Assembly: GCA_936450465.1 (NCBI GenBank)
Contig: OW388302.1
Location: 17,995,569 to 18,059,568 of the forward strand
Direction of reading: 5' to 3'
Source: Gibbula magus
Taxonomy: Eukaryota; Mollusca; Gastropoda; Trochida; Trochidae
Length of the DNA: 64,000 bases
Part shown: positions 27,051-59,693 of the stretch, piece after piece
Layout: each line of letters starts with the position of its first letter
Numbering within the stretch: the stretch's first letter is position 1
Translations under genes and position numbers: made by a program
The notes under the pieces: generated by a model
Told to the model about the DNA's origin: nothing
Seen by the model: the letters and a program-made list of their open reading frames with translations, nothing else
Databases searched by the model: none

Positions 27051-27420
27051 TCAGTTTTAATAATTTACTCCAATGAGAATGGTCCTTACATAATCCCATC
27101 TGCTAATAGTTCCTTAGAATGTTGCTTACATAATCCCATCTGCTTATAGTTCCATAGAATGTTGTTTACATAATCCCATCTGCTAATAGTTCCTTAGAAT
27201 GTTGCTTACATAATCCCATCTGCTAATAGTTCCTTAGAATGTTGCTTACATAATCCCATCTGCTAATAGTTCCTTAGAATGTTGCGTACATAATCCCATC
27301 TGCTAATAGCTCCTTAGAATGTTGCTTACATAATCCCGTCTGCTAATAGTTCCTTAGAATGTTCCTTACATAACCCCATCTGCTAATAGTCCAATCAGAT
27401 TATTCCATACATACTCCAAT
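27050..27420. repeat. 40-bp minisatellite, about 9 units
   Basis: Units of 40 bp (gttgcttacataatcccatc followed by tgctaatagttccttagaat) in intron 3 of copy 3. Confidence 0.9.
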
Positions 27421-28379
27421 CTGCTAGAAGTCCAATCAAAATGTCCTTTACACCCTCCGATCTGATAATAGTTAATACAATCTACCATTCGGAATTAAAC
27501 ATAAGTGACGCAGCTATCGACGGTTATCTAGAGTAAATGAATAAGTTGAAACATCATTCTATTGAGTCTTGATAAGTTTATAACAACAAGAATCCAAGCT
27601 TAGGGACATAAAAAAGAACAGTCTTACTTATGAGACCATACAGCATGCCACTTAATGTCATAACTACATATTAAAATGTGTGTAAACACCAATACCTATA
27701 AAACATCTACACATAAAAACACCCTCACGCACGTCAAATAGTTGCCTAGTGTTTACTCACTGACTCCTGTAGCAAACTGCTCGTGTATTTGTCCTGTAGT
27801 CGTACACGTCATCTTCTTGTCTACTTGACCCCATTTGTCTCCTACAGGTACGGAATCCTTGTCCTTGAGACAGTATACTTAAATAGACAATACATAGAAC
27901 ATAAAATGAATGTATGTGTCTTTCGATTAGGTATCTAATGAGCGAGTACGACACCGGTTTGTCAAATGACGTACTGAACCTACGTTCTGCGCCTACATTT
28001 ACAAAGCTATTTTAATGCTGAAATGTATGTAAGTGTCATACAATGTACATCAATAGTAGTTGTCCACACAGTCCAGATTATATACTCACCAACAATACAA
28101 GCAGTACCCTTGCGTTTCGTCTGAACTCGTATCTTCGTCTCTTGACATGGGGCACGGATCCGCTGCTTAAGAATATAAAACAAAGTTATAGTATGAATAA
28201 TTAATTAAAATTTTGAAATATATATGTTGTATCTATAAATAACCCCCCATGTAAGAACCACTTGAACATATCAAACATTCTAATGGGCAATAAACTGTTG
28301 GAGAAACAAGTAATTGTCACAAACGTGACCATGTCTTCCGCGGCAACTAAGAAATGAGCTAAAAGGATGAACACACAGC

Positions 28380-29035
28380 TAATGTCAAGGTCACCCAAAT
28401 CGAATGGTGTCTGTGTATTCCCCAAATGAAGACTGGTTCCAAATTTACAGACTCTAGGTACAGTGGTTCATGAGATATCACGCTAACAAGATTTTAAAAA
28501 CTGGTCAAAGTCTCTTAGTGACCTTGAAAATAAGTTTAAGGTTACGTAAATCGACTGCTGTCTGCGTATTCCCCAAATAAAAACTGGTACAATATTCCAG
28601 GTAGTCCAGATGCGGTGGTTCATGAGATATCGTGCTACCAACATTTGACAAACAATCAGACACACAGTCAAAACACCATCGATTTGGGTGACCTTGATTT
28701 TATTTTCAAGGTCATCCAAATCGACTGGTATCTGCGTATTCCCCAAATGATGACTAGTACCAAATCTAAAGACTCTAGGTGCAGTGGTTCATGAGATATC
28801 GCACTAAAAAGATTTTATCCCCAAAAATCACCAAGTCTTGTATTGACCTTGAGAATGACTAGTGTCTGCGTATTCTGGTAATGAAGACTGGTACTAAATT
28901 TGAAAACTCTGGGTGCAGGGGTTGATGAGATATCGCGCTAACAAGAAACGGGACGGACGTACGTACGTACGTACGAACGGACGTACGGAGCTGAATACTA
29001 TATCCTCCGCTCCGCGCTCCGCGGCGGCGGGGGCC
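28380..29035. mobile_element. Tandem-unit dispersed repeat (pearl/Helitron-like), copy P1
   Basis: About four degenerate units of 150-170 bp with shared phrases (tgtctgcgtattccccaaat, ttcatgagatatcgc), ending in an ACGT/ACGG microsatellite and a GC-rich hairpin-like tail (28950-29035). Related units occur at 59370-59660. The design (core tandem repeats, microsatellite, terminal hairpin) resembles pearl/HINE elements of bivalves; the assignment is inference. Located in copy 3 intron 1. Confidence 0.6.
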
Positions 29036-30418
29036 AATAAAACCAACCTCACCACAGTACTTTCCATAGGCAACCTATTGATAACTTAAATCTTCAAGTT
29101 ATAATTCTTGAACGATCTGATGCACCGAGTATTGAGCTTGAAAACAGGGGCACTATTACCAATTTATGTTAAGCAATTTCAGAAACAAATGTCAATCGAT
29201 TTTTTAAATCGGTTTTCTGTGCTAGTCTCAGTTTGCTAAAATGCTAATATCTTAAGCTTTGAAAAATCATATTTTTTTAATACACGATGGAATTTTATGA
29301 CTTATTTTGAATAAAGGTGTATTGGCTTTGATGTGATGTATAATATTGAAGGACGCTATTCTGAAAAATAATTTCAAACGGATAGATGAAGAAATCAAAG
29401 TTTACCTGCCATAAAGGTAGAATCCAACATTTTCCTTACAGTCCTATTTATAGCAAAAAATAGTTCTTGAAAGCCAGATGACATGAAATGGACAAGTTCC
29501 TCACTAAAGGGACTGGATGTTCATATCCATGTGATCATTGCAAGAACGTTGAAAGTTCCATTCGCTCATTTTCAAGAATGGGTAAAAAGACGTTTCTGTT
29601 TTTCGTTCCGTTTATTCCTTGGCTAGTGTTATGATTAGTAAATTCACGAGGGGAACACAAAATGAAACAAACAAGTGAGAACAAACAAGTATGATACCAT
29701 TCAATTGTATATTGAATAAAATACTCAACAAAAAAGTTAACGCTTAAATTCAATCAGGCATTAATGTAGAAACATCCAATAGATAAAACATTCCAGGACC
29801 TTCCTTACAGTTCCAAGAATACTACAAAGTAGCTTTTGAAAGTTAGATGACATGAGATGGACATTGAAAACATCAGACATGTGGCTTCTGGAATGTAGCA
29901 GCTAGTTACAGAGACTGAGTGCATATCCTGCTTTACCTTGCAAACACGTTTGTGATCCCAAACCATCTTAACTTAGTTATTTGATAACAATTAAAGAAAA
30001 AAAAATGCTCATAACACTAGGAATTTAGCACTTACCGACGTTGCATGTTTTCAAAACAGCATATCCATCTTATTATCCCTAGTTTGAAACATTCAGTGAG
30101 ATAAAACCGTATAACATTCAGTCGCAGGTGCCATCACAGAACATGCCTTTGTGAATCGACCACCAGACCACGGAGGATGTGCGAGTATAGACATCTTGAC
30201 AGTACCTAAATATTACCTTAACAATAACATTATGTATTACATCATACTGAATATATTCATTCAAACGGTCCTCTCGATTTGGTATAGAATAGAATCGATT
30301 ATATTATAAGTAATAACTGAAATATTGAAATTGAACTCGTTTCCCCCCAGTACTCTTCTCTTTATGAGTGTGATAAAACTCTTTGTACACTTTCTTGTCC
30401 ACAATTTAATATATTTAC
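29036..30418. other. Copy 3 intron 1, right part
   Basis: No gene. Two related segments at 29400-29520 and 29760-29880 share phrases (ttccttacag, agatgacatgagatggac), an old local duplication. Confidence 0.45.
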
Positions 30419-30620
30419 CTTTGGTTTCATGCTACCTCGGTAATGGAACTTTTCCAAAGTGAAGGGTTGATTGATTATACCTAAAGAAGTTACAAAACCC
30501 GCTCCGTGTACACCTCTGTTTGCAAAGCTTGATTCGAAGACGGTTCGGTAAACGCAAGGAAAGATGAACTTTTAACAGACAGACATAAAACACCCCCAGT
30601 ATTAAATTCGTCAACATCAT

Positions 30621-35270: not shown

Positions 35271-35376
35271 TTAGAGAAACTTTATAGGCAGAACTGAGGT
35301 ACGCGAATTTCCTTTTGGAACAGTTAGCAACAGGAGGGATTGATCTGGTGACAAGACATTTTCCAGCACTGCCGTT
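35271..35376 (-). CDS. Copy 2 exon 8 (terminal coding exon)
   Basis: 106 nt, tttgttacag acceptor to TAA. Encodes VLSPDQSLLLLTVPKGNSR then TSVLPIKFL and stop. The stop position is shared by copies 1, 2 and 4. Confidence 0.8.
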
Positions 35377-38300
35377 CTGTAACAAACAAAAAACACAAGT
35401 GATAGTTGATCAAACAGAGATACGATTCAAAACTGTTCTTTCATTTGATACAACATTAATACTTTGTTACCAGAATCATTGGTTACACGACAAATGCTTT
35501 GTTACCACAGTCCTTGGTTACAAGACAAATGCTTTGTTACCAGAATCATTGGTTACAACACAAATGTTTTTTTTACCAGAATCATTGGTTACACAACAAA
35601 TGCTTTGTTACCACAGTCCTTGGTTACAAGACAAATGCTTTGTTACCAGATTCATTGGTTACAACACAAATGATTTGATACCAGAATGGTTGGTCACAAC
35701 ACAAATGGTTTTACCATTGGTTACAACGCAAGGTTTCATGATCAGATTAAACAAATAATTTCAAATTTGAATTTAGCCTAATGAAGTCTTTAAACCCCCA
35801 AGAAGAGTAGGTCCATCATACAAGAGCTACCATTATTTAAGGACAATGGGTGTATATTACTTACCTGTAATTCTTCCGATATCGAGATATAAGGTGGCCC
35901 TGGCACCAGAAGATATCATCACATTTAACGTTGTATGTGACTGCAGTGGTTTTCTTCAGGTCGTCGCTGTGGTTGTATCTCACTAGGTGGTGGTCACCCA
36001 TACACACGTATATGTACAAGTCTGAAAGAAACAACGAATAAATCCTTTATCATCACGAGTCACCCATACACACGTATATGTACAGGTCTGAAAGAAACAA
36101 CGAATTAATCTGTTATCATCACGAGTCACCCATACACACGTATATGTACAGGTCTGAAAGAAACAACGAATTAATCCTTTATCATCACGAGTCACCCATA
36201 CACACGTATATGTACAGGTCTGAAATAAACAAACCACTTAATTCTTTATCATCACCACCGGTCAACCAGGGCTTCCAGTTCAAATCTTTTAGGCTGCAAA
36301 CAAAGTTAAATTTTCTCGAGCACATTTTTTAAAAAAATGACGAGGGCGGTAGGATTTTCTCTTTATTTTTTGTTGAAAAATGATGAGTACATATTTTCCA
36401 TCAACAGTAGCCTGGAAGTGTTAGAAGAATAATAACATCCGTTCCCGCAGACCAATATATTTGGTGGACAAATAAATTTGAGGGGTTAGTAAAAATAATA
36501 TGGCAAATTCATAATTCCTTTTTTCGAATAACTATAAAACGATGTCACGTGCACCAACATTGGTGATTTGCCGATGCCCGAGGAACATTTCAATTTTGTT
36601 TAACATTACACTTTATTATTCACATCAGATAATACGGGTGTGAAATCAAGTGATACCCACAGTAATATATCAGCCCTCCAAGGAGGCATTGGTTGTTAAT
36701 TTGGGTGGGTCCCGCCAAGATTCATTATTGTCCATTGCGTGGTATAATCAACTTGTTTCAAGTCTTTGAAAGCCATTGTTCATAAACTTTGGAATGTGAC
36801 ATGACATATATAGTTTATAATGAAACACATTTACCAATGTTATCCCCTCAAAAGGTTGCTAATGTCATCTGTTGTCATCGTAATGTTGTCAACTAATGAT
36901 GACGTCATAATGATATATATGACCTCAATGAGATCAATGAGATCAATGAGATCAATGAGATAGGCTCATGAAGCCGATTGCTGTTTCTTTCAAATAAATT
37001 TTAATCTCATGTAAGATACAAGGAATTAACAAAATATCATAGTTTATAATCATGTTTGTCTAAGGAGTATGAACGCATGATTTCAGCTTTCTAGGGCTTT
37101 TTCAATGTTTTGACATCATATTCTGTGAAATATGAAAATTATGTTGATACAAAATGTTGTCGATATAATGACCCCTTCTTGAACTCTTCTTCGTTGATGC
37201 ATCGTTACTGCATGACGTCATAAAAAAAAGCCAAAACAGGACATACTTCATTCTCCTATCTCTGTTGGTTAAGAAAATTCCTAAACGAGGATTTCTGAAT
37301 TTGGCAAAATACTCTGTATGTCCCTTTAAAGATTGATCAAGAGTATCAACTGGGGGAGGACATTCTGCATGAAGGTATTCTGTTTTCAGTCTAGACCGAC
37401 ATGCCAAAAAGACATGAGGGTACTTGTGCGTACAATACATCACTCTACACACTCAACAAAGAGAAAAGTTCAGAACAATACACCACACTCCACAAAGAGA
37501 AAAGTTCAGTACAATACACCACACTTCACAAAGAGAAATGTTCAGTACAATACATCTCATTCTACAAAGAGAAATGTTCAGTACAATACATCTCATTCTA
37601 CAAAGAGAAATGTTCAGTACAATACACCACACTCCACAAAGAGAAACGTTCAGTACAATACACCACACTTCACAAAGAGAAATGTTCAGTAAATACATCA
37701 CACTACACACTCCACAAAGAGAAACGTTCAGTACAATACACCACACTTCACAAAGAGAAATGTTCAGTACAATACATCACACTCCACACTCAACAAAGAG
37801 AAACGTTCAGTACAATACACCACACTTCACAAAGAGAAATGTTCAGTACAATACACCACACCTCACAAAGAGAAATGTTCAGTACAATACATCTCATTCT
37901 ACAAAGAGAAATGTTCAGTACAATACATCTCATTCTACAAAGAGAAATGTTCAGTACAATATACCACACTCCACAAAGAGAAACGTTCAGTACAATACAC
38001 CACACTTCACAAAGAGAAATGTTCAGTAAATACATCACACTACACACTCCACAAAGAGAAACGTTCAGTACAATACACCACACTTCACAAAGAGAAATGT
38101 TCAGTACAATACACCACACTTCACAAAGAGAAATGTTCAGTACAATACATCACACTCCACACTCCACAAAGAGAAACGTTCAGTACAATACACCACACTT
38201 CACAAAGAGAAATGTTCAGTACAATACACCACACCTCACAAAGAGAAATGTTCAGTCGATACATCTCATTCCACAAAGAGAAATGTTCAGTACAATACAT

Positions 38301-41300
38301 CTCACTCCACAAATAGAAATGTTCAGTACAATACAACAAACTTCACAAAGAGAAATGTTCACTGCAATACACCACACTTTACAAAGAGAAATGTTCAGTA
38401 CAATACTATACACTCCACAAAGAGAAATGTTCAGTACAATACATCTCATTCCACAAAGAGAAATGTTCAGTACCATACATCTCATTCCACGAGGAGAAAT
38501 GTCCAGTACAATACTCCACACTCCACAAAGAGAAATGCCCAGTACAATCCTCCACTCTCCACAAAGAGAAATGTCCAGTACAATACTCCACCAGCCACGA
38601 TGAGAAATGTCCAGTACAATACTCCACACTCCACAAAGAGAAATGTCCAGTACAATACTCCACTCTCCACAATGAGAAATGTCCAGTACAATACATCTCA
38701 CTCCACGAGGAGAAATGTCCAGTACAATACTCCACACTCCACAAAGAGAAATGTCCAGTACAATACACCATACTCCACAGAGAGAAATGTCCAGTACAAT
38801 ACTCCACACTCCACGCGGAGAAATGTCCAGTACAATAGTCCACACTCCACAAAGAGAAATGTTCAGAACAATACTCCACACTTCACAAAGAGAAATGTTC
38901 AGTACAATACATCACACTCCACACTCCACAAAGAGAAACGTTCAGTACAATACACCACACTTCACAAAGAGAAATGTTCAGTACAATACACCACACCTCA
39001 CAAAGAGAAATGTTCAGTCGATACATCTCATTCCACAAAGAGAAATGTTCAGTACAATACACCACACTTCACAAAGAGAAATGTTCAGTACAATACATCA
39101 CACTTCACAAAGAGAAATGTTCAGTACAATACATCACACTCCACAAAGAGAAATGTTCAGTACAATACATCACACTCCACACTCCACAAAGAGAAACGTT
39201 CAGTACAATACACCACACTTCACAAAGAGAAATGTTCAGTACAATACACCACACCTCACAAAGAGAAATGTTCAGTCGATACATCTCATTCCACAAAGAG
39301 AAATGTTCAGTACAATACATCTCACTCCACAAATAGAAATGTTCAGTACAATACAACAAACTTCACAAAGAGAAATGTTCACTGCAATACACCACACTTT
39401 ACAAAGAGAAATGTTCAGTACAATACTATACACTCCACAAAGAGAAATGTTCAGTACAATACATCTCATTCCACAAAGAGAAATGTTCAGTACCATACAT
39501 CTCATTCCACGAGGAGAAATGTCCAGTACAATACTCCACACTCCACAAAGAGAAATGTCCAGTACAATACTCCACACTCCACAAAGAGAAATGCCCAGTA
39601 CAATCCTCCACTCTCCACAAAGAGAAATGTCCAGTACAATACTCCACCAGCCACGATGAGAAATGTCCAGTACAATACTCCACACTCCACAAAGAGAAAT
39701 GTCCAGTACAATACTCCACTCTCCACAATGAGAAATGTCCAGTACAATACATCTCACTCCACGAGGAGAAATGTCCAGTACAATACTCCACACTCCACAA
39801 AGAGAAATGTCCAGTACAATACACCATACTCCACAGAGAGAAATGTCCAGTACAATACTCCACACTCCACGCGGAGAAATGTCCAGTACAATAGTCCACA
39901 CTCCACAAAGAGAAATGTTCAGAACAATACTCCACACTCCACAAAGAGAAATGTTCAGTACAATACTCCACACTCCACGAGGAGAAATATTCAAAGTGCG
40001 CACATGCATCATTACTGTTGTGTAAGGACCAACATTGTTCCTTTTTCATTCTCAACTCACTGGGGGTAGCAGGTACCCAATTGTACTGCGCAGTGATCAG
40101 AGGCACACCTCGAATTAGGTCACATTGCCCAAGATAACAGAGCTTGCATAAGTTTCACAACTCTTGTCTCTGTGTAAGAGACAGCTAGTTAAACCTTCAA
40201 GCTCTCAGAATATCAAGATATGAAGCAGTTAGATATGACACCGAAATACTCTTACCTACATTAAGAAGTGTTTGAACAGGTTTATTACTAATTGTATCAA
40301 ATCGTATGGAGTACGTACCAGTAACAACAAAATCTGCAATGTCCTTCACAAGATGTTGCGTCGTGTCTTCTCCGTGGTAATTGATGCTGAAGATCCCTCT
40401 GTAGCCACCGGAGAAGTAGAGGCGTCTGAAACATTATTTCAGTCCTTGATATATTCCTTCTTCAGTTCTGAAACTTACATGTAATTGGTTCACAAGGTGC
40501 CTTGTGACAATTTTATAGTCATGCTGATCATAACACACAGTGTAACGCTGAAATAATCTCAAACTTCAAATCGTGTCTAGGTAACTTTATCTGCTGATCT
40601 ATATCTACGCATAGCAAGATTTGGTTGCATTCTATATTGAAATTCATAATGTCCAAGGCGTCTTGCAGGTTCCACTAAAAAGCATGACCATGATGCTGTT
40701 GGAAGCAAAAATGCAATCCTTGGTGATATTAATTAACTTTTGAAAGCGGCGTAAAATAAAAAATAACCTCACCTTACCCCAAATAAAACCCCAGTTTATA
40801 TAGCATGTTGCTAATATACTCACCTGCAAAAGAAACGCTCCCAGGTATTTTAATCTAGATTGAAGAATAAATAAAGAAGTCAGGTTTGAAAAAACTTAAT
40901 GTTTATTCAAAAAGAACATGTGCCTATATCATATTCATAAAAATGCAACCAATCAGCTTCCGGTATCAACATCACAGTCTCCGATATTCGTCCGGGGGTC
41001 AAAAAGTCCAAGTTCACGGTTATGAGTGATCCCGGATCAGGGAAATCCAGGCTCAATGTAACAAAAACAGTTCACACTAATAATGTGTATGGCCTCCCCT
41101 TGCCATGATAACCGCAGTGACCCTCCGACGCATGGAGAAAATCAAACGTCATTATGTGGACTGCGCTGGCATTCTTCTTGGAGAGCTTGGACAAGTTGAA
41201 AGCAGTTATGTGGAGGTGGTCGTCGTTCGCGAATACGACGATCCATATCGTCCCAAAGATGTTCGATCGGTGACATGTCAGGCGAGCATGCTGGCCACGG

Positions 41301-44300
41301 CAAAACGTCGATGTTGTGAAAGTTGAAGAAAGTGTTGAGTCACTCGAGCTGTGTGCGGTCTGGCATTGTCTTGTTGAAAGATCACACCTTGTTCCTGTTC
41401 CTGGGACAGACGACGGGACGGAGAATGTCATCGATGTAACGTTGAGCCTTTAGATTTCCATTCACTATAACCAGCTGCGTCTTCTCCTCCCCAAACCATG
41501 ACACTTCCTCCCCCGTAGGGCACCACTTCCTTGAACGCAACATGCAGCTGTTCTCTCTCCCTGACGGCGATAAACACGTACTCTTCAATCTGCTTTGAAG
41601 GGACAGAACCGACTTTCATCAGAGAAAAGCACCCTCTGCCACTGACGTCGCTGCCAACGTAACACCGTCCTTGCCCATCTCAGTCTTCGTTGGGGATGTT
41701 CGGCTGTCAACCGCTGTCCCCATAACGGTCTGTATGCCCTGATGCCATGGGATCTTAGACGTCTGGACACTGTGCGTCTGCTTACCTGGTTGTCCAGAGC
41801 ATTTGTCACCAATGACGTCACAGCAAAAAGCGGTTCCTGAGGTGTAACGTGTGCAGGTATCGGTCCTCCTGGTGGGTTGTGACTTTTGGTCGGCCTGATC
41901 TTGGCTTGTCTGAGGTCTGTCCGGAATGACGATAATGCTGCATTAGTCTTGTGACAGTTGTGCGGTGACAGCCAAACGTTCTTGCAAAATGGGTGTGGGT
42001 GGCTCCCATTTCAATCATCCGGATTGCTTGCTAACGTTCTTGTAAAGTTAATCTTGCCATTCTTCAAATGTTTTTTTAAAAAGTGGGTGTCTAACAACCA
42101 ATTCGCATTGGTTTTATACGCATCGGTCATTGGTCTTGTTTGCTTTGCATGAAAAAACACAATTTGTGAAAATTAGGGGAAATCATGCGTTTGATACCAC
42201 AGTTCAATATGAAACAATCATTTTTGTGTTTGGGCGATGTGTTTTCATGTGGATGGGTTTGAATCTGAGTGTTATCTTTTTTCGTTATTTCAAATCTAAA
42301 GTGGTAGCTTTTCTTTTATCTGAGAACCTCAGACAGATTGCTGAAATTTGTTCCTAAGGTTGAAGTCCTTCAAGCGAATTTAAAGTGTCATATGGCCTGG
42401 TATTAAATTAAGTATGACATTTTTGAAGATCAGAGTTACAAGTTCCTTTGGTGACCTAAGTGGCAAATGTTATGGCTTCTTCAACACTATTCACGTTAAG
42501 GAAAATAACGTTCACGATGTTGCCTGGAAAATCATGCTTTTTCATAGGTTTAGGAGGTTGAAACATAAACGCCATACTAGATACTGACGTTTGAACTCAT
42601 GATTAAGAAGATCCTAAGTTCTGTTATTGTGAATTTGATGTCTATAGCTTTGGGTCACTAAAGAAGGTTGTCTCTAATGTAGTAACCTCTGAAACGTCCA
42701 TATAATCCTCTTCAGCGCATCAAAAGTGAAGCGAACATGAAATGAACCAAATGTGGTGCAATTTATCTACTCACTTGGCACTGCGATGAAGACACATGTC
42801 ACCCTTTGCCTTGAATTTCTTTAGCTTGGTAGGGGGGAAATGTGTTCTGTATATATTCGAGGATGTTGACTTAATAAAAATGAAGCCAGCATGGAGGTCC
42901 AGTTGGACAGCATTCAGTCGTTTATTGCTGGAAAATAGAGTTTGATATAAAAACTAAGCCTTTCAGTGCGATTTTAAAAAGTGGCAACTTATATTTGAGG
43001 AAGCACATTATTAGAAAACAATTCAATAACACTCTCTTCCAACTGAATTAATAGTTGTTAACATAACTTAATACCAACTTTATGCTCATCTTGCTCCTCA
43101 AGGACATTGTCCTGTTCCCTTCAATCCCCAGACTGTCCCAAATTTTTCCCGTTTTACTGAAATATAGTACATTCTTCTTACATACAGCATGTGTTGTGTT
43201 AACTAGTAATTGTCGTGATTTGAAAGTTGAGCTCGAGGTCGCCCACCAGTCTCGCACAGCCAATGGTGCTCGATAAATGTCATTTTATTGGCCAGTTATT
43301 TATGTCAATATTCAAAGCAAATCTAAAAAGACCACCCTGGGATTGAAGGAGACTTACAACTACATTGATGAAGCAGGATGCTTGAATCTGTACCTGTCAG
43401 GGAGCTTTACTGGGTATACGTTGTGGAGATGTACTTTCTCGTCTATTGTTAAGTTTCCTACTTTATCTTGATCCTCGTTGATATAGATGTATGTTCCCGA
43501 GCCCGGGTCATACCCGACCCAGTGGAGACTTACTGATTGTTTTTTCGTGGTCAGATACTTCAGTGATGGTTCTTGGAGTCGAATCATTGTGAGTCCTGAG
43601 GGAGAGTTATAACCGCTATAGAACAAGACCACTGAAATTAAATGAAGTGGTATTGAAATATCAGATTACAATTGTCACATCGATGTATGTGGTGTTGTGA
43701 CACATTCGAGGCAACAGATGACAGAGACCTCGATAAACTGTTATTATTTTTTTTCATTTAACCGACCTCATCAGAATCAACTTACTCAACCTACTCAACG
43801 TCTCATCAATCCACAAACTTGAATAAAAAGTTGTAGATTTTTGTTTTGCTTTTAAAAAAACGGAAGGGAACACTTATTTCGAAGAATTCAAATGTAACTG
43901 AAAGGTTTTAGACATATAAATGGTTGAACTTTCGTAAACAATTCTAAAACGATTTTTGGGATTGGAATAACGTTGTCAAGATACATTATTTCAATTGATT
44001 GAAACATATTTATTCAGTCAAGAAAAGGATTGGGCACAACTTAAAAAAGCCCTTTCCTGGTAATTACATCTTTGATATCCCAATTCACAGCACGAGATGG
44101 ACAAGTGTTAAGGATATGTACAAGAGTAACTTAGACAAAACGTTTTGTTTGGGAGATATAAATATGTACAATTTTGAATACATTCTGATTTTCAAAGATA
44201 GAGAAACCTGCATTGTCATGTAAATTGAGATCAATATCTATTCTTGATCGACAAAGTGAAACAAAATCTAATCTAGATTACACACTGTACTAATGCCATG

Positions 44301-46428
44301 TTGTATAGATCAACACGGTGAACATCTCAACACACAGGCACATATCAAACCAGTTGCCAAGTGTGTACTCACTTAGTCCTGTAGCGAACTGCTTGTGTAT
44401 GTGTCCTTCAGCAGTACACATCAATTTCTTGTCTCCTTGGCCCCATCTGTCTCCTACGTGTATGGTATGATTGTCCTTGGGACAGTATTCTGTAATACAC
44501 AATACATAACAGATAAAACGAACTTGTGGCTTACACAATGATGATTCGAGTTTTCATCCACTGAGCGAACAAGTATAAGGTCACCTTACTTATGTTTCAA
44601 TTTAACTGTAACAATCAAAAGAACAGAAACAATATCTAAAATCGACAGATAAAGATACACTCACCAACAACACAACGAGGACCCTTGAGTTTCGTCTGAA
44701 CTTGTATCTTTGTCGCGGGACATAGGCCACGGATTTGCTGCCAAAGAGATGATCCAACTATGAGATTATCTGTTTACATATAATAAGATAAGATATATAT
44801 TATATGATAATGGCATGCTACTTCATGTAAGAAGCTTGATCTAGGATTTGTCGACATGAACCTGAGCATAACGATATCACAGCTTCTCATAACCAGTGAA
44901 TTGTTCAAGAGAGAAAACCTACCGCGGTAATGATAATTTTAAAGGCAACCTATGGGTAACTCATATTTGATTGTTTTTTTTTAAATCTAAAAGATTGTCA
45001 TATTTTTAGCGTTTAATGACATACACTCGTGACATTTGAGCATCGTTTAATGAGTAACAGTGCTATTTAGAATACGTCAAGGGGAGACAACTCGTTGGTC
45101 TTTTTCAAAATGGTTGGATACCCGTCTGATTACTTGATTACTCTGTCTCATCTTAAAAGCTCGATCTGTTAATAGTACCTCAATAAAAGAACACAACAAG
45201 TACAGCAACAATGGTATGACGTCGCCAGAACTCGCTCAATTGAAACAGTTTCTGACCACAGAAGCATAAAATAAATATAATATTTTGTCTTTTCAGTGTC
45301 TCATCTCGTGCGCCACTTGTGAACATATCGGCTTTACCCCGTCACTCGATGAGAGCTAAGTGATATCTCACTGAAAACACAAAATATCCTTTATACAAGC
45401 CATGTTGCACAGGTATAGACCTATCCTTTCTGCGAGCAAACGTCAAAACAAGTAAAACACGTCCACCCTACAATGGTCAGTGTCATGCTCTTCAGTACAG
45501 ACATCGTCAATTGACAATGGGGCAGACGAGTTCGACATTTACAGAAGTACAGGCACCGTGTAACCTTCACTGACGAGAGTAAGTTTATCTGTACAAAAAT
45601 GAAGACCGGGCACGCATTTATAGAACATTTAGTGCTAAATTTTTTCAGAAAGCGCCCCTTAAGCGAAATGGTGGGGGATATCGATGATGACCTCTTGGAT
45701 AACTGTATAACTGGCACATTGTCTGCAAAAGAATTGCAACGAATCGAGAGCACCATGGACTTGTAACTGGGCCAATACGGAAATACTTAACAAATGAAAA
45801 TTTTCATTCATTAACCCTTTTCATTCTATTTGCATAATAGTAAACATCTCATTCTCATTGAAACCTTAACTATAAACAAAATTGGTGAACAGATATCACG
45901 GGTCAAAGTTGTGAGGTGATAGCATCCTTCTTTTAAGAAATATGTGACTGCGCATGCTCAGACTCGTATTGGCTCAGTTTTCTCTAGTATTGGTCCTTTT
46001 TGTCCTGTATTGGTCCAGTTTTCTCGTATCTGCCCAGTTGTCGAGTCATATGGTCTAGGCCGTAAGTGTCATTACAGTGATAGTTAATTAATAATTGAGT
46101 ACATTTCCTGTAGAATTTAAACCTGTCATAAAAAGCACCCTCTTTTATACACACTTCTCTTAAATTAAACGTTTGATATAACACACTGTATACTTTTGAC
46201 CACAAGTTCAGAAATATTTACCTTTGGTTGCATGCTACCTTGAGACTTGAAGTTTCCCATGCTGCATTGAAGGCTTTGTTGATTGTACTTATAGTAGATA
46301 CAAAACCCACTCCGTATACATCTATGTTTGCAGAGCTCGATCCCAAGACGGTTTGGTAAACGCAGAGAAAGATGTACCTTTATCAGACAGACATAAAACA
46401 CTTCCAGAACCGAATTCGTCCACATCAT
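35271..46428 (-). CDS. Secreted-protein family copy 2: complete 8-exon gene, 358 residues, function unknown
   Basis: Minus-strand exons: 46428-46222, 44737-44665, 44489-44373, 43631-43394, 42846-42775, 40425-40319, 36021-35865, 35376-35271 (TAA). Lengths 207, 73, 117, 238, 72, 107, 157 and 106 nt sum to 1077 nt, 358 codons plus stop. Every junction has GT/AG and matching phase (0, 1, 1, 2, 2, 1, 2), and there is no internal stop. Residues 5-24 are hydrophobic, as in a signal peptide. C33-x3-C37-x5-C43 then YKYN and C55 resemble the core of an apple/PAN domain. Later exons give 8 more cysteines and sequons NHT, NLT and NHS. Exon 4 (WVGYDPGSGTYIYINEDQDK) and exons 6-8 look beta-rich, with no recognised fold. 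ATG choice: all three minus-strand copies keep an ATG here before the same hydrophobic stretch. Start and secretion are inference. Introns contain a Tc1 relic, a 2.5-kb minisatellite and acceptor repeats. Confidence 0.82.
35464..35735. repeat. 35-bp minisatellite in copy 2 intron 7
   Basis: About eight units of 35 bp (gttaccagaatcattggtta and so on) with alternating variants. The period is not a multiple of 3, and the overlapping open frames are artefacts. Confidence 0.88.
35865..36021 (-). CDS. Copy 2 exon 7
   Basis: 157 nt, tttctttcag acceptor, AG/gtaagt donor. Encodes LYIYVCMGDHHLVRYNHSDD, then KCDDIFWCQGHLISRY; three cysteines, sequon NHS. Found in all four copies. The acceptor plus the exon start is repeated three more times upstream (36022-36240). 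Confidence 0.87.
35993..36240. repeat. 66-bp minisatellite built from the exon 7 splice acceptor (copy 2)
   Basis: Four units of 66 bp, same design as 21509-22065: each unit holds the polypyrimidine tract, AG and the exon 7 start. The unit nearest the exon body is the functional acceptor in my model. Confidence 0.88.
36241..37445. other. Copy 2 intron 6, left part
   Basis: No gene. A short gatcaatgag tandem repeat lies at 36927-36962. Confidence 0.5.
37446..39992. repeat. 36-bp minisatellite with 1020-bp higher-order duplication
   Basis: About 70 units of 36 bp (cacaaagagaaatgttcagt followed by acaatacaccacactt), some units 34-48 bp. The block around 38240-38520 recurs exactly 1020 bp later (39260-39540), and after one extra unit the offset becomes 1056. 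Because 36 is a multiple of 3, open frames of 200-489 residues appear on both strands; all repeat TKRNVQYNTPHS-like or complementary words and are not genes. Intron 6 of copy 2. Confidence 0.95.
40319..40425 (-). CDS. Copy 2 exon 6
   Basis: 107 nt, gtttcag acceptor, ACTG/gtacgt donor. Encodes RLYFS, GIFSINYHGED, DFVVTG. Found in all four copies with 0-2 codons of length difference. Confidence 0.85.
40824..42075 (-). mobile_element. Tc1-like transposon relic in copy 2 intron 5
   Basis: Transposase frame starts at ATG 42060 (MARLTLQ) and runs to about 41085 with several frame breaks. Visible: GCHRTTVTRLMQHYR (helix-turn-helix), SGRPKVTT (GRPR-like linker), FSDESRF (first catalytic D), GGGSVMVWGG, FQQDNARPHTA (second D), PDMSPIEHLWD (final E). 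All three catalytic acids remain, but stops and frameshifts make it dead. A ctgcaaaagaaacgc left end near 40824 resembles other ends in the window; the right end was not resolved. Confidence 0.8.
42076..42774. other. Copy 2 intron 5, right part
   Basis: No gene. Phrases here (gaggatgtt, gcatgcttt, ggttgaaa) match 23690-23940 in copy 3 and 54000-54040 in copy 1, confirming intron homology. Confidence 0.5.
42775..42846 (-). CDS. Copy 2 exon 5
   Basis: 72 nt, phase 2 at both ends, so it can be lost without changing frame, as has happened in copy 3. Encodes THFPPTKLKKFKAKGDMCLH; basic; one cysteine. Matches 54296-54225 in copy 1. Confidence 0.8.
43394..43631 (-). CDS. Copy 2 exon 4
   Basis: 238 nt, atttcag acceptor, AG/gtacag donor. 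Encodes MIRLQEPSLKYL, LHWVGYDPGSGTYIYI, DKVGNLTIDEKVHLH; sequon NLT; no cysteine. Strongly matched by copy 3 exon 4 (24215-23987), which is 3 codons shorter. Confidence 0.85.
44373..44489 (-). CDS. Copy 2 exon 3
   Basis: 117 nt, tattacag acceptor, gtgagt donor. Encodes EYCPKDNHTIHVGDRWGQ and LMCTAEG; sequon NHT. The C-x-V-G-D-x-W and C-T pattern faintly recalls von Willebrand factor C modules, but the cysteine spacing is incomplete, so I do not assign it. Confidence 0.8.
44665..44737 (-). CDS. Copy 2 exon 2
   Basis: 73 nt, ttggcag acceptor, gtgagt donor. Encodes QIRGLC, TKIQVQTKLKG and CVV; two cysteines. Same length in copy 3; truncated in copy 1. Confidence 0.75.
46222..46428 (-). CDS. Copy 2 exon 1: signal peptide and apple/PAN-like motif
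   Basis: 207 nt, 69 codons, phase 0 end at CCAAAG/gtaaat. Starts MMWTN; hydrophobic VLEVFYVCLIKV; then ELCKHRC, RSGFC, YYKYN, QCSMGNF. The homologous exons of copies 1 and 3 carry 11-nt and 5-nt deletions at the last cysteine, so only copy 2 is in frame. The frame is open for 23 codons upstream of the ATG, so an internal exon with an acceptor near 46392 is an alternative; that AG is not phase-conserved in copy 3. Confidence 0.68.
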
Positions 46429-49313: not shown

Positions 49314-49419
49314 TTAGAATACCTTTATGGGCAGAACGAATGTTCGCGATTTTCCGTATGAAATTGATAGCAAGCGCCGATCTTCGTTTGGTGACACGAT
49401 ATATCTTAGCATTAACGTT
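49314..49419 (-). CDS. Copy 1 exon 8
   Basis: 106 nt, tttgttacag acceptor, ends RTFVLPIKVF and TAA. Same length and stop position as copy 2 exon 8, though many codons differ, so the exon frame has been kept over a long divergence. Confidence 0.7.
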
Positions 49420-49799
49420 CTGTAACAAACAAAAACACACGTGAAACATTATCATTTAAGAAATCGAGACAGAATTAACCAGAGATACGACTCAAGAGTA
49501 ATTGGTTACAACACAATATTTCATGATTCGAAAATATAATTAGTGTGGTTGAATATAAGAGAAATGATTGAACGAATTAAGTCGATCGATCAAAATAGTG
49601 TCAATTCTTGTAGCTGTGTTCTATAAGGGATATCAACCTCGAAGTTATATTTTCGCATGCAGTGATGAGAATGTTTTTTAAAATGTTTGTCTCTTACCTT
49701 CAGGATATAACAAATGGTGCTTCCGACTATAATCTATACCCTAAATATTATTGACAATTAAACTGAGCAAAAACTGAAAACTTGACAACTTAGTTTTCC

Positions 49800-51023
49800 T
49801 GACACAAAAATTTAAATATTTGTATGTTGTGCAAAGATCAATTAGGTATGTTCAGAAAACATAAACACAAAATCACGTTTGTTTTTAACGTTGATAACGT
49901 CAATGACGTCTGAATACCATCCCAAATGAATTTCCAAGAATGAAGAGAATTGATCTAAGGTGATCAGTAACGATTGTGTCCACCTCTAGCGTCTCGTACA
50001 GCCACACAATGTCTCCTCGTGGATCTTAGAACGTTAGTGAACAATGCCCGACAGGGTGACGTTGAAGACCTTGCAACGTCTGTGGTGGATTAACTTGTTG
50101 AAGAACACGTCGACCCAGTTCGTCTTAGATGTGTTCGATCGGATTGAGGTCGGGGTGTCATGATGGCCAATCCAGGACTTGAACACCAACCTTTGTGAGA
50201 AAATTCTGCATCAGAACTGCGGTATGGGGCCTAGCGTTGCCTTGCTGAAACGTTAGTCCAGGGCCGTGTCTCTGCATGAACGGGAGGAGAACAGGTTGCA
50301 AAATCTAATCCCTGTTACTGGACAGCATTTAAGTTCCCTTGAACAACAACCAGTGGAGAACGACCGTGTGCACAGAATGACTCCTAAACCTTGACGCTGC
50401 CGCCTCCAAATCGGTCAACTTCACGTACGCAAACTTGAGCGTGACGTTCACCTTGTCTGCAGTACACACGGGCCCTGCCGTCAGCAAATCTCAAGGTGAA
50501 TCGAGATTCGTCATTAAAAACAATGAAATGCAACTGTCATTGATTTAACCTTGGGCCTTGTGACCCTAGCAAGACGGTTACAGTGATGAAGTGGTGTTAG
50601 GATAGGTCCTCTTTAGGGTCTCCGTGGCATGCAAGCGATTTCTGACTGTCTGTGGGGTGGGTTATCCTTCCACCAAACATCTCCCTGCTTGAGGAAATTT
50701 CACATGGTTTGTGAGATGATGTCAACGTATTGCTGCATCTTCCCGGAATGACGTCACACGAGACGGTCCTGACTGATGGCGGTCTGCAACTGTTCCCGTA
50801 TGATGTACTCTAATCCAGAGATTTAAAATTGTTTATCGTGAACAGATGAAAGGTCTTGCCACAGTGTCCTCAGACAGACAAGCATGGAGCCTCCCCATAG
50901 CGCGTTGACGTTCTTCATTTGTACGACGCGACATTGCCAAAAGGTCAAAATTAAACTCAGTTCATGCTAACATGCATCGATTGACCTCATGATTTTGTGT
51001 TTGCAAGTTTCCTATTTTTGTGT
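49800..51023 (-). mobile_element. Second Tc1-like transposon relic (copy 1 intron 7)
   Basis: Transposase begins at ATG 50934 (MSRRTNEERQRAMGRL) and is followed, through many frame breaks, by DESRFTLRFADGRARVY (first catalytic D block), FGGGSV and remains of later blocks down to about 49925. Possible end repeats: gacacaaaaat at 49801 and its complement near 51021. Different lineage from the relic at 40824-42075. Dead. Confidence 0.7.
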
Positions 51024-51374
51024 CTACAAAATTAATGATTAGACGTGACTTCACAAATTCCTCACTTTAAAGGAGTCAAAACCTTTACTTTCACTACAAA
51101 CAGTGTTTAGAATATTTCAATGAACAGACAGAAACGATTTCATAAATTTACCTGTGTCAAGTTTTCAATTTAGCTAAGTATATATGAGGACCATGAGTGT
51201 ATTTCTTACTTTGAAGCATGCACATATCGGGATATAAGATGGTTATGACACCAGAAGATATCATCACAGTTAACGTTGTATTTGACTGCCTTTGAATTAT
51301 CCAGGTCATTGCTTGTGTTGCATCTCAATAGGCGGTGATTATCCGTACACACGTATATGTACAGGTCTGAAAGA

Positions 51375-52065
51375 AAGAAAACATCGCCATCACCATCGCC
51401 ATCACCAACACTAACACCAACAGAATCATCATCACATTACCATCACCAACACCGCCACTGCATCAGCACTATAACGAAAACCAACATCAACACAAACCCA
51501 AAGACAAACACAAACACCATCAGCATCAGCATCAGCATCAGCATCAGCATCAGAATCAACATCAACATCAACATCACAAACACTGTCACTGTCACAATCA
51601 CTATAACGAACACCAACGCCATCTCAATCACGAAAATCTACATCATAACCAACACGATCATCGTCACCATCACCTACACGATCTCCAACACCAACACCAA
51701 AACCACCACCAACACTAACACCATCACCATCCCCATCACAAATACCAACATCAATATGATCACCGCCACCGTCACCATTACTACCACCAACAGTCACACA
51801 ACCACCAACACCAACATCAACATCAACCAGTCACCATCATCATCACCAACATCAACATCGTCACCATCACCAACACCATCACGATCACCAACATCAACAA
51901 CATCATCAACACCAGCATGATCACCATCACCGTAACCATCACTAACACCATCACTAACACTATCACTAACACCATCACTATCACCATCACTATCAACATC
52001 ACTATCACCAATCATCAATCACCAATCACCAATCAATCACCAATCACCAATCACCACTAACTGAG
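51375..52065. repeat. CAN/ATC-rich trinucleotide-hexanucleotide array
   Basis: About 690 bp of CAT/CAC/CAA triplets (atcaccatcaccaacac-type words). It abuts the acceptor of copy 1 exon 7, the same place where copies 2 and 3 carry 66-bp arrays. Low-complexity open frames here are artefacts. Confidence 0.9.
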
Positions 52066-52152
52066 TTATGGCATTGTTTGGATATGGTAAATGACCGAAT
52101 TTGTATAATCACAAAAGATAAACGTCAGAACTGGACGACTTGACGAAATATA

Positions 52153-52898
52153 CTGAACAGCAAAAGAAATGTGAGTCCACTGTAACAATGTTGTAATTAG
52201 TGATGACGCTGTTTTAAATTATCAGAGCATTCAAATTTTGTTGACATGATGTTGATAACGTGTTGAACAGCGTGCAGACAAAATGAAAAGTACTAGTGTA
52301 GAACTTCTGCAGAGCTTTATCATGTGTCATAGTCATTCTGTGTGAAAACAACCACATTCCTGTTCAGATGATGATTGGCCCAATGTGCTTTTAAATGCAA
52401 ATGGATTTTGTGCAAACACTCCAATAAAGTTGTCTGATGCAAAACCCCTGTCTTTGCTGATGTTTATTTTACGTTACGGTGTCATTTGATAAAACTTCAT
52501 GGTATTGCATTCTTTTTCGGTACCCAGGTGTTCCACGAGCACAGTTAAAGTCCTTGCAAACGGTTCAGCATGAAATCGGCCATTATCCCAGTTTCCGAAA
52601 TATTCAAGTTGAACATTGAGGCTGGAGTCACAATTTGAGGTCCTGTTCACAGAGCCAAGTCTCGGATTAAAGCACGAGTAATTACATTTTACCAGGCTCA
52701 TGCAGATCATGTTACCATAACCACACGTGACGTGCATTTCCGCGAACTGATACCCTATGACTTTGCAAAGGTAACAATCTGTACTCTACAGTACCAATAG
52801 CTCAAAATGGTCTCTGACATTTACTAATGATATGAAAAACCATGGATATGCAAACGGAAACTATAATCATTAAAAATCGCGTTTCTTTTGCTGTTCAG
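52153..52898. mobile_element. 746-bp element with Tc1-like inverted ends enclosing a cysteine-rich ORF
   Basis: Ends are ctgaacagcaaaagaaa at 52153 and its complement ending 52898, with TA on the left and TT on the right. Similar ends (caaaagaaacg) occur singly at 40824 and 62990. Inside, on the minus strand, is the ORF at 52737-52474 followed by AATAAA at about 52468. No transposase. It lies in copy 1 intron 6. Confidence 0.65.
52474..52737 (-). CDS. Cysteine-rich ORF inside the 746-bp inverted-repeat element, unknown
   Basis: 87 codons from ATG 52737, open further upstream through GYQFAE. Contains HVTCGYGNMIC, KCNYSCF, a SNC and an EKEC cysteine, and an NRT sequon, and ends FYQMTP and stop. 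AATAAA lies a few nt after the stop on the same strand. It resembles the last exon of a secreted protein gene. Not similar by eye to the eight exons of the local family. It could be a captured host exon or chance. Confidence 0.35.
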   Translation of the reverse strand: MHVTCGYGNMICMSLVKCNYSCFNPRLGSVNRTSNCDSSLNVQLEYFGNWDNGRFHAEPFARTLTVLVEHLGTEKECNTMKFYQMTP

Positions 52899-54660
52899 TT
52901 TAGTTGATGAATAAACATTGATTGATTTATTAATTGGTATAGTCAATACTTGTATGTGCATATATGGCAAAAGAATTCCTTATCACTTATGTGTACATTA
53001 TGTGTTCGATGTGTGTATTACCGCTTGACCAAAACTATCACCAGAGGAATCCACTTCTTGTCGCTATGTTTCACAATCTAGATGGGCTTGTATATACGGT
53101 ACAGGTTATACACAGTTTGAACTAAGGACCACAGTCACACATTACAGACAATTGGTCATCCAGTGCACTGTACGTACCAGTAAAAACAAAATCTTTAATG
53201 TCCTTCACAAGGTGGTCCTTTGTGTCTTCGCCGTCATAATTAACGCTGATTATCCCTGATGTGTAATCGTGGGAGTAGTATAGGCGTCTGAAACAGCATA
53301 TATAGTCCTTTGATATATTTCTGATTAAGCCCTGCAGTCTTCACTTGTGTCGTCATGCTAGTTATATGTCTTCTTCAGAGAAGGTTTTTACATGGAGAAA
53401 GGTTTGGTTCAAGCACAGCATATTCTATGTTACATCTCATTACTAAAATGTCAACCGTAATGTACTTAGAAAGAGTAAAAAAAATGTGGAGTGGCTTACA
53501 ATATGAGATTTTTTTCAGAGGTGTATTTTCTTTAGTTCCAAAACTACTGAAGATAAAGTCATGATTGATAGCTCGTTTTAAAGCAGAGGGACTGATTAAG
53601 AAAGAATAATTTAAAGTATCAATCTGCCGAGAGATCGTCTCAAACCCGAAACCTTCATACTGCTGCACACTAAACCTATCGGTACCACATCGGCTGAGCT
53701 GAAGAGGTGGAATATGTTAGTCCTCTTCAAATGAATGAATGATATAAAGGATTTGACGGACGGATAGCCAATAAAAATGAATAGCAGTTAAAAAAAGATA
53801 GCCAATAAAAATGAATAGCTCTGACGAAGAAAAGCTACGACGGAAAGGCCTCGTGACCGGTAATTATCCTTTACGTATAATGCTAAATATTTAGTGATAA
53901 TAAATTTAATTATGGTTGAGTGTCAAAACCCCTCTTAAACTGAGAACAGGAGAACGTATTAAAACTATTTCGCAAGTTGAATGCAAACTCAGTTCATTAA
54001 GGTTGAGGATGTTTTCCAAAACAGTCTAAGAGGTTGAAAACAACACCAGGTTGGAATCACTGGATTGACTCACTTGGTTGTAGATTTATATAATCTGGCT
54101 TTGAAACACTCCTGCGTGATAGTTAAGAATTGTCTGCTTATATTTTAATATTTTCTCCAAGCAATAACTTTTAGAGAAACGATGCACATGAAATATCTCA
54201 AAATGGGACCAATTCTCTACTCACTTGACACTGCGATGAAGACAGAAGTCTCCCTTTGCCTTAAGTTTCTTTAGCTTGGTTGGTAGAAAGGTGGTCCTGT
54301 GTGCACCCCCGAACATCACCATGATAAAAATGAAACCAGCTTTGAGGTCCGATTCGACAAATTCCAGTTTTTTTTAGGAAGCTGGAATATGAAGTTCGTT
54401 CTACATTTTATAGTTATACCTCGAACATTCTACTTAATAACAAGTCTAAACCTCAAAAACATAAATTATTGTCTTCTTACGACTTTGCTAGCGGGTGTTT
54501 ATGACAGGGAGAACACATGATAGTAGAGTAGTAGTGTTTTCTCCAAATCATAAACTGTTAGCTGTCAAAATATAACTTTCCCTCATCAGCGTTATATTTA
54601 TTCAGCGAATACATGACTATAAATATAATTATTTTAGCCTACATTTTCAGTCGAGTCTTG

Positions 54661-54724
54661 TCTGCAGTCTTGTGGTAGAGCTTCCGATTTAAAAAACGAC
54701 GGGTCTCGAGTTCGAATCCAGCTA
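54661..54724 (+). repeat. tRNA-like fragment (SINE head or tRNA pseudogene)
   Basis: Has an A-box-like tgtggtagagct and a B-box gagttcgaatcc 33 nt apart. No proper acceptor stem pairs, and a poly-A-like tract follows. Not a functional tRNA. Confidence 0.5.
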
Positions 54725-55429
54725 TTTAAACTTAGAATTTAAAAAAAAATATTGACAGGTTTACTTTTCATAATAATTTTTGTTTAAAATTGGTTCGTTG
54801 GTTGAAATCGTTCTACAACTCTTTTCCAGTCAGGTTTACTTTAAAAAAAAAACTTCATACATGGCTATTTAGGGAAGAAAAAACAACTTATAAGAAGTTA
54901 TAAAAGAAAATAATTGATCTACAAAACAATAGTCGAAAGCTGACATAAGTTTTATAAGCGCCTTTTCAATACATATTGGACCTGCTCTGACTGTAAGCTG
55001 GATTCTTAGAAGGTATTTCACTGTCATGTTCAGACTGAAATTAAGTGATCTCACAAAAAGGTAAATAACTGTTACAAATCGCAAAATGATACTCCTGAAT
55101 CAATAAAAAGCATTCTAAAACGAATGCACATGGTTCGGTTAAGCCATTGGAGACCATTGTAAGGTGTTCACATTAAAATGACCGTTCAATGGATGTTTAC
55201 GTGATCTGACTGGTGTACCGATACCTAAACTCGCGGAGTAGAGTTTTAAATATGGTACAATGATGGAATGGTCAACCATCTTAATACTGTCTAAAACCTC
55301 AAAATAGCACGAGACCTACAAATCTACCATTGACACTGAAGAGTTCCACAGAATGATTGCTTTATATGTCAAATCATTCTCTTCTTAATAGCGTGATCAT
55401 GTTTCTATGGGTACGGCCTTTCGGGTAAA

Positions 55430-55540
55430 GTAATTAAATGTTTTACCCTCTAACGTAACACTATATTGCACACCGGAATATTTTAAAAATAAATGGCACA
55501 TCTGAGAAGACCAACATGCAAAAGAAATGCTACAGCACCT
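55430..55540. mobile_element. TTAA MITE family M1, truncated copy in exon 4 of copy 1
   Basis: Carries the family phrase ttaccctctaacgta and the right end gctacagcacct followed by TTAT. The left half is missing. It interrupts coding sequence of copy 1 exon 4, homologous to copy 2 up to about 55545. Confidence 0.68.
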
Positions 55541-55573
55541 TTATTAGGGAGAGGGAGAGTGGTAACTCTTTGA

Positions 55574-55800
55574 GTACAAAACCACTGAAATTGAATGAAG
55601 TGGTCATAAAATATCGGAGTACAAAACCACTGAAATTGAATGAAGTGGTCATAAAATATCGGAGTAAAAGACCACTGAGAGTGAATGAAGGGGTCATAAA
55701 ATATCGGAGTAAAAGACCACTGAGAGTGAATGAAGGGGTCATAAAATATCGGAGTAAAAGACCACAGAAATCGAATAAAGTGGTAATAAAATATCAGAAT
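55574..55800. repeat. 51-bp minisatellite built from the exon 4 splice acceptor (copy 1)
   Basis: Four to five units of 51 bp. On the minus strand each has the acceptor atttcag and the exon 4 start TGGTxTT. Same principle as the 66-bp arrays at exon 7 but at another exon of the family. Confidence 0.8.
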
Positions 55801-56284
55801 TAAGGACCGCTGAAGTTGATATCGCAACCATGGACTGAGACAACCAAACAGATAATTTGGTCACTCTGTTAACGGGGACTGCACTGTAAGCCTAATGGAG
55901 CTGGTGTAATGTTAAACTATGACTGACTAATGAGACTGACTGTAAGTATTGATATGACCTGATTATAAAAGTTCCATCTCGTTCATACTGTAAAATACCA
56001 AGTACTGCTATCGTAGAAAGTCGACTTTAGATGCTTACTAGAAAGTGTTTTTACCCGTAAAAACAGATGTCTCCCCCTATCTCAAATGCTCCAAACCTCT
56101 AAACAATACTATCATAAAGCACCATTAATGTTCTCTGTATAATTCAACTTTAATAAATACCTTATCAACTGCACAATTGTAGCAAACAAAATATTCAAAA
56201 TTCTAAATTCTGACAAATCTTTTTATGTTGAGTAAGTAAACAACAAACCAGTGCTTGTATTATGAGAGGTTTATTACTAAAGAC

Positions 56285-57719: not shown

Positions 57720-57817
57720 CGAGTCCCATGCGGGATTCGAACCCAAGCCCTCATAGTAAGGCAACTATCGCCAGCATTGTCTGTACCAGCAGCTTACCAC
57801 ACGACCATTTCGCCTCC
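57720..57817 (-). repeat. tRNA-derived SINE head
   Basis: Minus strand has an A-box-like tggtcgtgtggtaagct and, after a long Leu/Ser-like variable region, the B-box gggttcgaatccc. The acceptor stem is incomplete. Flanked by the atatttgggataacactacc segment on the left. Read as SINE, not as an active tRNA gene. Confidence 0.6.
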
Positions 57818-57917
57818 ACAAAAATCGAGGTCCAACAATCGATAGTTAAGCTAAGTTTACATTCAATACTCCTCTGATAGACGTAAATTTGGCACAACTC
57901 CCTAGGCTGAATGCATT

Positions 57918-59665: not shown

Positions 59666-59693
59666 TGACGTGTGGACGTTGCTTAATACATAG

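What the first reader, a model, noticed from the sequence alone, without database searches (positions are those of the whole stretch)
35271..46428. Complete gene of an unrecognised secreted cysteine-containing protein family
Eight exons found by comparing copies have GT/AG borders, matching phases at all seven junctions and a sum of exactly 359 codons with one terminal stop. The product has a signal-like start, an apple/PAN-like C-x3-C-x5-C...C motif, three sequons and 12 mature cysteines. I do not recognise the exon 4 or exon 6-8 domains in any family. Four copies in one window suggest a lineage-specific expanded secreted family (immunity, mucus, shell or reproductive roles are all possible guesses).
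Basis: partly seen in the sequence, partly recalled or inferred. Interest (0 to 1): 0.88.

Follow-up and report, generated by a model that had tools for sequence, protein, structure and literature searches.

The report
Fast-evolving secreted-protein gene, probable beta-propeller
The window holds one intact eight-exon gene for a probably secreted, cysteine-containing protein, with three damaged or cut-off copies beside it; its supposedly unrecognisable second half is most likely a very diverged form of a known binding domain (a beta-propeller), though this is not yet proven.

Summary
The gene is real. Eight minus-strand exons (46428 down to 35271) have GT/AG borders, compatible phases and exactly 359 codons with one terminal stop; 0 of 20,000 random same-length splices from this window were stop-free. 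Cysteines and sequons are as claimed. "Four copies" needs correction: only copy A is complete. B (exon 1 frameshift, lost exon 6 donor, no exon 5 or 8) and C (frameshift, stop, exon 4 lost) are damaged; D shows exons 6-8 only. Exons 4-8 keep frame in every copy but evolve fast (omega 0.42-0.82). "No family" is too strong. Exon 1 gives weak PAN hits in three of three copies. Exons 6-8 give sub-threshold hits to DUF5050, a propeller family, in 3 of 8 queries that contain exon 6 (E 0.0016-0.024). Profile comparison with DUF5050 and LDL-receptor propellers beat 150 of 150 permutations for three of four profiles. Best reading: secreted PAN-like plus six-bladed-propeller binding protein. No transcript, full-length fold or relative outside the window was obtained; taxon and function are unproven.

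The parts
46222..46428 (-). Copy A exon 1: start codon(s), weak hydrophobic leader, PAN-like C-x3-C-x5-C-x11-C
   Evidence: PAN_1 E=0.058 at residues 30-63
44665..44737 (-). Copy A exon 2, phase 0 in and 1 out
44373..44489 (-). Copy A exon 3, symmetric phase 1-1; reads YCPKDNHTIHVGDRWG...CTAEG (fibronectin-1/VWC-like by eye only; no Pfam hit for the A or B version)
43394..43631 (-). Copy A exon 4: first proposed propeller blade and start of the second
42775..42846 (-). Copy A exon 5, symmetric phase 2-2 (not found in copy B; its absence would not break the frame)
40319..40425 (-). Copy A exon 6: best-matching propeller blade (RLYFSGGYRGIFSINYHGED...)
35865..36021 (-). Copy A exon 7: further proposed blades (LYIYV..HLVRYN..DDIFWC..HLISRY)
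35271..35376 (-). Copy A exon 8: C-terminus, single stop codon
35993..36255 (-). 66-bp tandem array, 4 units: each repeats the exon 7 acceptor and about the first 29 nt of exon 7; the three upstream units run into stops after ...CMGDS
21379..30620 (-). Copy B: exon 1 (frameshift), 2, 3, 4, 6 (GA donor), 7; no exon 5 or 8 found; damaged
49314..63804 (-). Copy C: exon 1 (frameshift), 2, 3 (stop), 5-8 open; exon 4 lost except about 50 nt; damaged
2980..12034 (+). Copy D: exons 6 (2980-3092), 7 (11443-11602), 8 (11890-12034), open and in phase; exons 1-5 not found in 1-2980

Best explanation
Copy A is an intact protein-coding gene of a locally duplicated, fast-evolving family. Its product would be a secreted glycoprotein of about 357 residues. 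A short leader is followed by a partial PAN/apple-like disulphide module (exon 1), a small cysteine-containing linker or module (exons 2-3), and a diverged six-bladed YWTD/DUF5050-type beta-propeller (exons 4-8). It most likely works as an extracellular binding or adhesion protein: the PAN-type module and the propeller face give contact surfaces for protein or sugar ligands, and loose constraint with repeated duplication lets those surfaces diversify. Shown: the gene structure, its non-randomness, frame conservation of exons 4-8, and the duplication. Supported but sub-threshold: PAN and the propeller. Inferred: secretion, six blades, binding role.
For: Gene model; control 0 of 20,000 stop-free. 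Frame conservation: in all 10 comparisons of exons 4-8 of B, C and D with A the length differs by zero or a multiple of three (a few borders in C and D were chosen by me among possible ones), and there are 0 stops in 424 aligned codons, against 5.7 expected and P 0.0023 in a neutral simulation over the three copies together (0.12-0.15 for each copy alone). Omega is 0.42-0.82 over six copy pairs, clearly below 1 for C-D (2dlnL 10.05) and A-C (5.30). PAN. Propeller: DUF5050 E=0.0016 (D exons 6-8), 0.019 (A exons 6-8), 0.024 (hand-made consensus of exons 6-8). hhalign of the four-copy profile scored above 150 of 150 permuted profiles for DUF5050 proteins, DUF5050 units and whole LDLR-type propellers, with the same blade register for the last two. 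LDLR-unit HMM: 0-3 of 1000 shuffles reached the observed whole-sequence score, per query. Single-exon models of exons 4 and 7 are mainly strands.
Against: No domain hit passes a curated cut-off. Of 8 Pfam queries that contain exon 6, 5 gave no DUF5050 hit: full A, B exons 4-7 and C exons 5-8, the whole exon 4-8 consensus and B exons 6-7. hhalign probabilities are low (1.3-16.2%), and the LDLR-unit profile was matched by 6 of 150 permutations. The DUF5050-unit HMM was not significant for full A (421 of 1000 shuffles) and weak for C (46 of 1000); in a pooled test two shuffled sequences outranked C and many outranked A and B. No propeller was among the PDB sequence hits. The exon 4 model is low-confidence (pLDDT 57.9), and its fold search had no match at E <= 0.001. 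Raw codon-position counts show no clear third-position excess. Omega for A-B is 0.82, not different from 1. The leader of A is poorer than in B and C, and the exon 7 acceptor is preceded by three decoy copies, so A may splice badly or be decaying.
Confidence: 0.55

Rival explanations
1. The gene is real, but exons 4-8 form an unrelated, truly new beta-rich fold; the propeller resemblance is a convergence of Tyr-rich strands.
For: All hits are sub-threshold and only 3 of 8 queries with exon 6 hit DUF5050; no homologue at E <= 10 in a database that includes animals; fold search of the low-confidence exon 4 model without a significant match.
Against: DUF5050 ranked first among 24,736 families for three (overlapping) queries of exons 6-8. 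Two separately gathered propeller sets align in the same register, and three of four profile comparisons beat all permutations.
Confidence: 0.25
2. Copy A is itself a recently decayed pseudogene, or is under strongly relaxed constraint: its reading frame is still open but makes no working protein.
For: B and C are damaged; omega A-B 0.82, not different from 1; no clear third-position excess in raw counts; weaker leader than B and C, and duplicated acceptors at exon 7.
Against: All 14 splice borders and 358 codons are intact; exons 4-8 keep frame in every copy with P 0.0023 under neutrality.
Confidence: 0.17
3. The exons belong to a transposon-encoded protein.
For: Several copies in one window; transposon-like ORFs are present nearby.
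Against: Copies keep a spliced multi-exon layout. The transposase-like and reverse-transcriptase ORFs are separate and lie within introns (Tc1-like in intron 5 of A; reverse transcriptase plus tyrosine recombinase in intron 6 of D). No queried exon piece matched a transposon family in Pfam.
Confidence: 0.03

Closest known systems
Pfam DUF5050 (PF16472), largely bacterial propellers; one member is named after an LDL-receptor-related protein by its source (P0051); the InterPro name LRP1-like beta-propeller is recalled
   Same: Repeat pattern ..nv.gdwIYY....i.ri..DG.., aligned with exons 6-7 and, more weakly, exon 4
   Different: Below the gathering score (best 18.2 against 27 bits); repeats much diverged; three cysteines in exon 7
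LDL-receptor class B (YWTD) six-bladed propellers of animals
   Same: Whole-propeller profile aligns to the end of exon 5, exon 6 and the start of exon 7 above 150 of 150 permutations; by eye, six Tyr-rich repeats
   Different: No Pfam Ldl_recept_b hit; YWTD motif degenerate (LYFS, LYIY, IFWC); the single-unit profile did not beat all permutations
PAN/apple domain proteins
   Same: C-x3-C-x5-C-x11-C in exon 1; PAN_1 or PAN_2 as the only Pfam families hit by exon 1 of A, B and C
   Different: Scores below cut-off; only the middle to end of the domain is matched, and the leader seems to run straight into it

Membership tests
PAN/apple domain | Score above Pfam gathering cut-off | tested here: not met
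   PAN_1 13.7 (A) and 16.2 (B) bits against 21.4; PAN_2 13.4 (C) against 21.1
PAN/apple domain | Core of four to six cysteines (from the start of the abstract of PMC9249922, seen in the listing) | tested here: inconclusive
   Four cysteines at 33, 37, 43, 55 in A; disulphides unknown; B and C, frameshifted in exon 1, keep three before their stops
DUF5050 / LDLR-type beta-propeller | Score above Pfam gathering cut-off | tested here: not met
   Best 18.2 bits against 27
DUF5050 / LDLR-type beta-propeller | Repeated blade units in consistent register | tested here: inconclusive
   One clear unit in exons 6-7, second-best alignment in exon 4 in the same register; other blades by eye only
DUF5050 / LDLR-type beta-propeller | Closed six-bladed four-stranded fold | not testable with these tools
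Transposon protein | Match to transposase, reverse transcriptase or integrase domains | tested here: not met
   No such family for the exon pieces queried; the window's transposon-like ORFs are elsewhere

The most novel reading that the evidence does not exclude
A lineage-restricted secreted family in which a PAN-like module was fused to a propeller that has diverged beyond recognition, and in which tandem duplication across 3' splice sites (66-bp arrays at exon 7 in A and B, a 45-bp array at the lost exon 4 of C) creates decoy acceptors that truncate or remove propeller blades, so that splice-site arrays drive isoform and copy turnover.
Probability: 0.12. Interest if true: 0.65.

Novelty: new variant of a known kind. 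Interest (0 to 1): 0.4.

Why it matters
If right, an 'orphan' secreted family becomes a member of a well-studied fold class with a known kind of binding surface, which makes its ligands testable. It also shows how quickly extracellular recognition genes can diverge past profile detection. The repeated acceptor arrays are a concrete, testable case of splice-site duplication accompanying exon loss.

Tried and rejected
Rejected: ependymin-related protein (considered from a paper title; the cysteine and motif pattern recalled for that family does not fit); other minor Pfam hits (Baculo_VP39, DUF3238, DUF6849, DNA_pol_viral_N), at E 0.035 or worse and with no shared logic; enoyl-CoA isomerase and antibody PDB hits (E 0.068 or worse). 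Strong diversifying selection was considered after the raw codon-position counts but not supported once codons were aligned. An alternative frame of exon 2 looked better conserved between A and B by eye, but in A it gives a stop at the junction with exon 3.

Led nowhere: viral contigs with exons 4-8 (15 pattern matches, none a relative); genome contigs with exon 7 (6 pattern matches, none a relative); Rfam and tRNA (none); PDB by sequence; Foldseek of the exon 4 model (306 matches at E <= 10, none at E <= 0.001). Paper searches: the gene's motifs 0 papers; PAN/propeller/mollusc term sets 0 papers, and 7, 20 of 43, 13 and 12 of 1,233 papers listed. Among the titles and abstract starts listed I saw no description of such a family; no paper was opened, and the unlisted ones were not seen.

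Full report
Observation. Random eight-piece splices of the same lengths from this window carry 21.3 stops on average and none of 20,000 was open. The product has 13 cysteines, of which the first lies in the leader, and three sequons; an AATAAA lies 172 nt past the stop. The start is a double ATG: copy C aligns only with the second Met of A, so that Met is the more likely start (inference).

Copies. Comparison within the window shows one complete copy and three incomplete ones. B carries a 5-nt deletion in exon 1, a GA in place of the exon 6 GT donor, and no exon 5 or 8 in the stretches searched. C carries an 11-nt deletion in exon 1, a stop in exon 3, and only about 50 nt of exon 4. D shows open, in-phase exons 6-8 on the other strand, its exons 1-5 not being found in the 2980 bases before it. 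Exon 5 is a phase 2-2 exon, so its absence in B does not break the frame.

Selection. In exons 4-8, the 10 exon comparisons of B, C and D with A differ by a multiple of three bases or not at all (splice borders that differ from A, such as those of C exon 7 and D exon 8, were chosen by me), and no stop occurs in 424 aligned codons. A neutral simulation with half of the differences placed on the copy's own branch expects 5.7 stops, P(0) 0.0023 for the three copies together and 0.12-0.15 for each alone. Pairwise omega is 0.82 (A-B), 0.56 (A-C), 0.62 (A-D), 0.54 (B-C), 0.58 (B-D) and 0.42 (C-D); only A-C and C-D differ clearly from 1. Raw counts by codon position, made before codon alignment and over all exons, show no clear third-position excess (B 47/59/57, C 51/48/65, D 34/24/31). 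Twenty 60-nt intron flanks of B and C are 67% identical to A against 61% for shuffled controls, while exons are 67-92% identical. Together: coding and constrained, but loosely. Synonymous divergence between A and B is lower in exons 4 and 7 (0.21, 0.19) than in exon 6 (0.64), which may reflect gene conversion.

Domains. Exon 1 gives PAN_1 at E 0.058 (A) and 0.0094 (B) and PAN_2 at 0.086 (C), the only families hit by exon 1. Exons 6-8 give DUF5050 at E 0.0016 (D), 0.019 (A) and 0.024 (hand-made consensus). DUF5050 is, from recall, an LRP1-like beta-propeller family; one member is named after an LDL-receptor protein by its source. Five other queries that contain exon 6 gave no DUF5050 hit: full A, B exons 4-7 and C exons 5-8, B exons 6-7 and the whole exon 4-8 consensus. 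Read as blades, exons 4-8 give LFYSGYNSPSGLTMIRL, TYIYINEDQDKVGNLTID, RLYFSGGYRGIFSINYHGED, DLYIYVCMGDHHLVRYN, DIFWCQGHLISRY and LLLLTVPKGNSRTSVLPI: six units, as expected for this class of propeller (by eye).

Tests of the propeller. The profiles were built from the best 120 listed proteins of each kind. LDLR-unit HMM scores were reached by 1, 0, 1, 3 and 1 of 1000 shuffles (A, A exons 4-8, B, C, D); DUF5050-unit by 421, 14, 9, 46 and 0; DUF5050 full-length profile by 1, 2, 19, 1 and 1. In an earlier pooled run with 2000 shuffles of each, D ranked first, two shuffles stood above C, and A exons 4-8 ranked about twentieth. hhalign of the four-copy profile: DUF5050 21.2 (null maximum 18.0), LDLR-type whole 26.2 (20.1), DUF5050 unit 20.3 (17.9), each 0 of 150 permutations; LDLR unit 14.5 (16.3), 6 of 150. 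The best alignments share one register, and exon 4 aligns second-best to the DUF5050 unit in that register. hhalign probabilities stay low (1.3-16.2%); the family profile holds only four close sequences. No control with other beta-rich families was run beyond the ranking within Pfam. Models of exon 4 (pLDDT 57.9) and exon 7 (65.5) are mainly strands, with one helix each; confidence is too low for fold search, and the one run had no match at E <= 0.001.

Relatives. The full product has no hit at E <= 10 among 5.8 billion proteins; the same database returned animal LDLR-type proteins including one from the snail Bulinus truncatus, so animals are not absent, but the method needs shared five-residue words and similar length. 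Viral and prokaryote contigs gave none. The source genome could not be searched: the request did not complete. The taxon was therefore not checked.

Mechanism. Most likely the product is secreted, folds into a PAN-like module, a short cysteine-containing linker and a propeller, and binds a protein or sugar ligand outside the cell. Secretion rests on a hydrophobic start that is weaker in A than in B and C. The ligand and biological role are unknown; immunity, adhesion, mucus and reproduction all remain possible.

Side observation. Just upstream of the exon 7 acceptor, A has three and B several near-copies of a 66-bp unit made of the acceptor and about the first 29 nt of exon 7; in A each runs into stops after ...CMGDS. 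In C, a 45-bp array (55572-55819) carries the exon 4 acceptor, and the rest of exon 4 is missing. These would be decoy splice sites; whether they are used is unknown.

Noticed in passing
35993-36255 and 21507-22048: 66-bp tandem arrays that repeat the exon 7 acceptor plus about the first 29 nt of exon 7 (A 4.0 units, B 8.1 units); the three upstream units in A lead to early stops.
   Followed up: partly
55572-55819: 45-bp tandem array in copy C that carries the exon 4 acceptor and first bases, where the rest of exon 4 has been lost.
   Followed up: partly
6151-10010 (-): Reverse transcriptase/RNase H ORF with a Dam-like match and a tyrosine-recombinase ORF behind it, DIRS/Ngaro-like layout (label recalled), sitting in intron 6 of copy D.
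   Followed up: partly
41072-42010 (-): Tc1/mariner-like transposase remnant in intron 5 of copy A (HTH_Tnp_Tc3_2 E 1.1e-12 in ORF 41585-42010; ORF 41072-41449 has no Pfam hit).
   Followed up: partly
15624-16505 (+): Two adjoining open stretches; the second (16218-16505) matches a DXD-motif glycosyltransferase region (Gly_transf_sug E 2.8e-08); the first (15624-16217) has no Pfam hit.
   Followed up: no
37448-39993: Large 36-bp satellite of about 70 units in intron 6 of copy A, in a stretch with strong strand asymmetry (GC skew -0.27 over 36001-40000).
   Followed up: no
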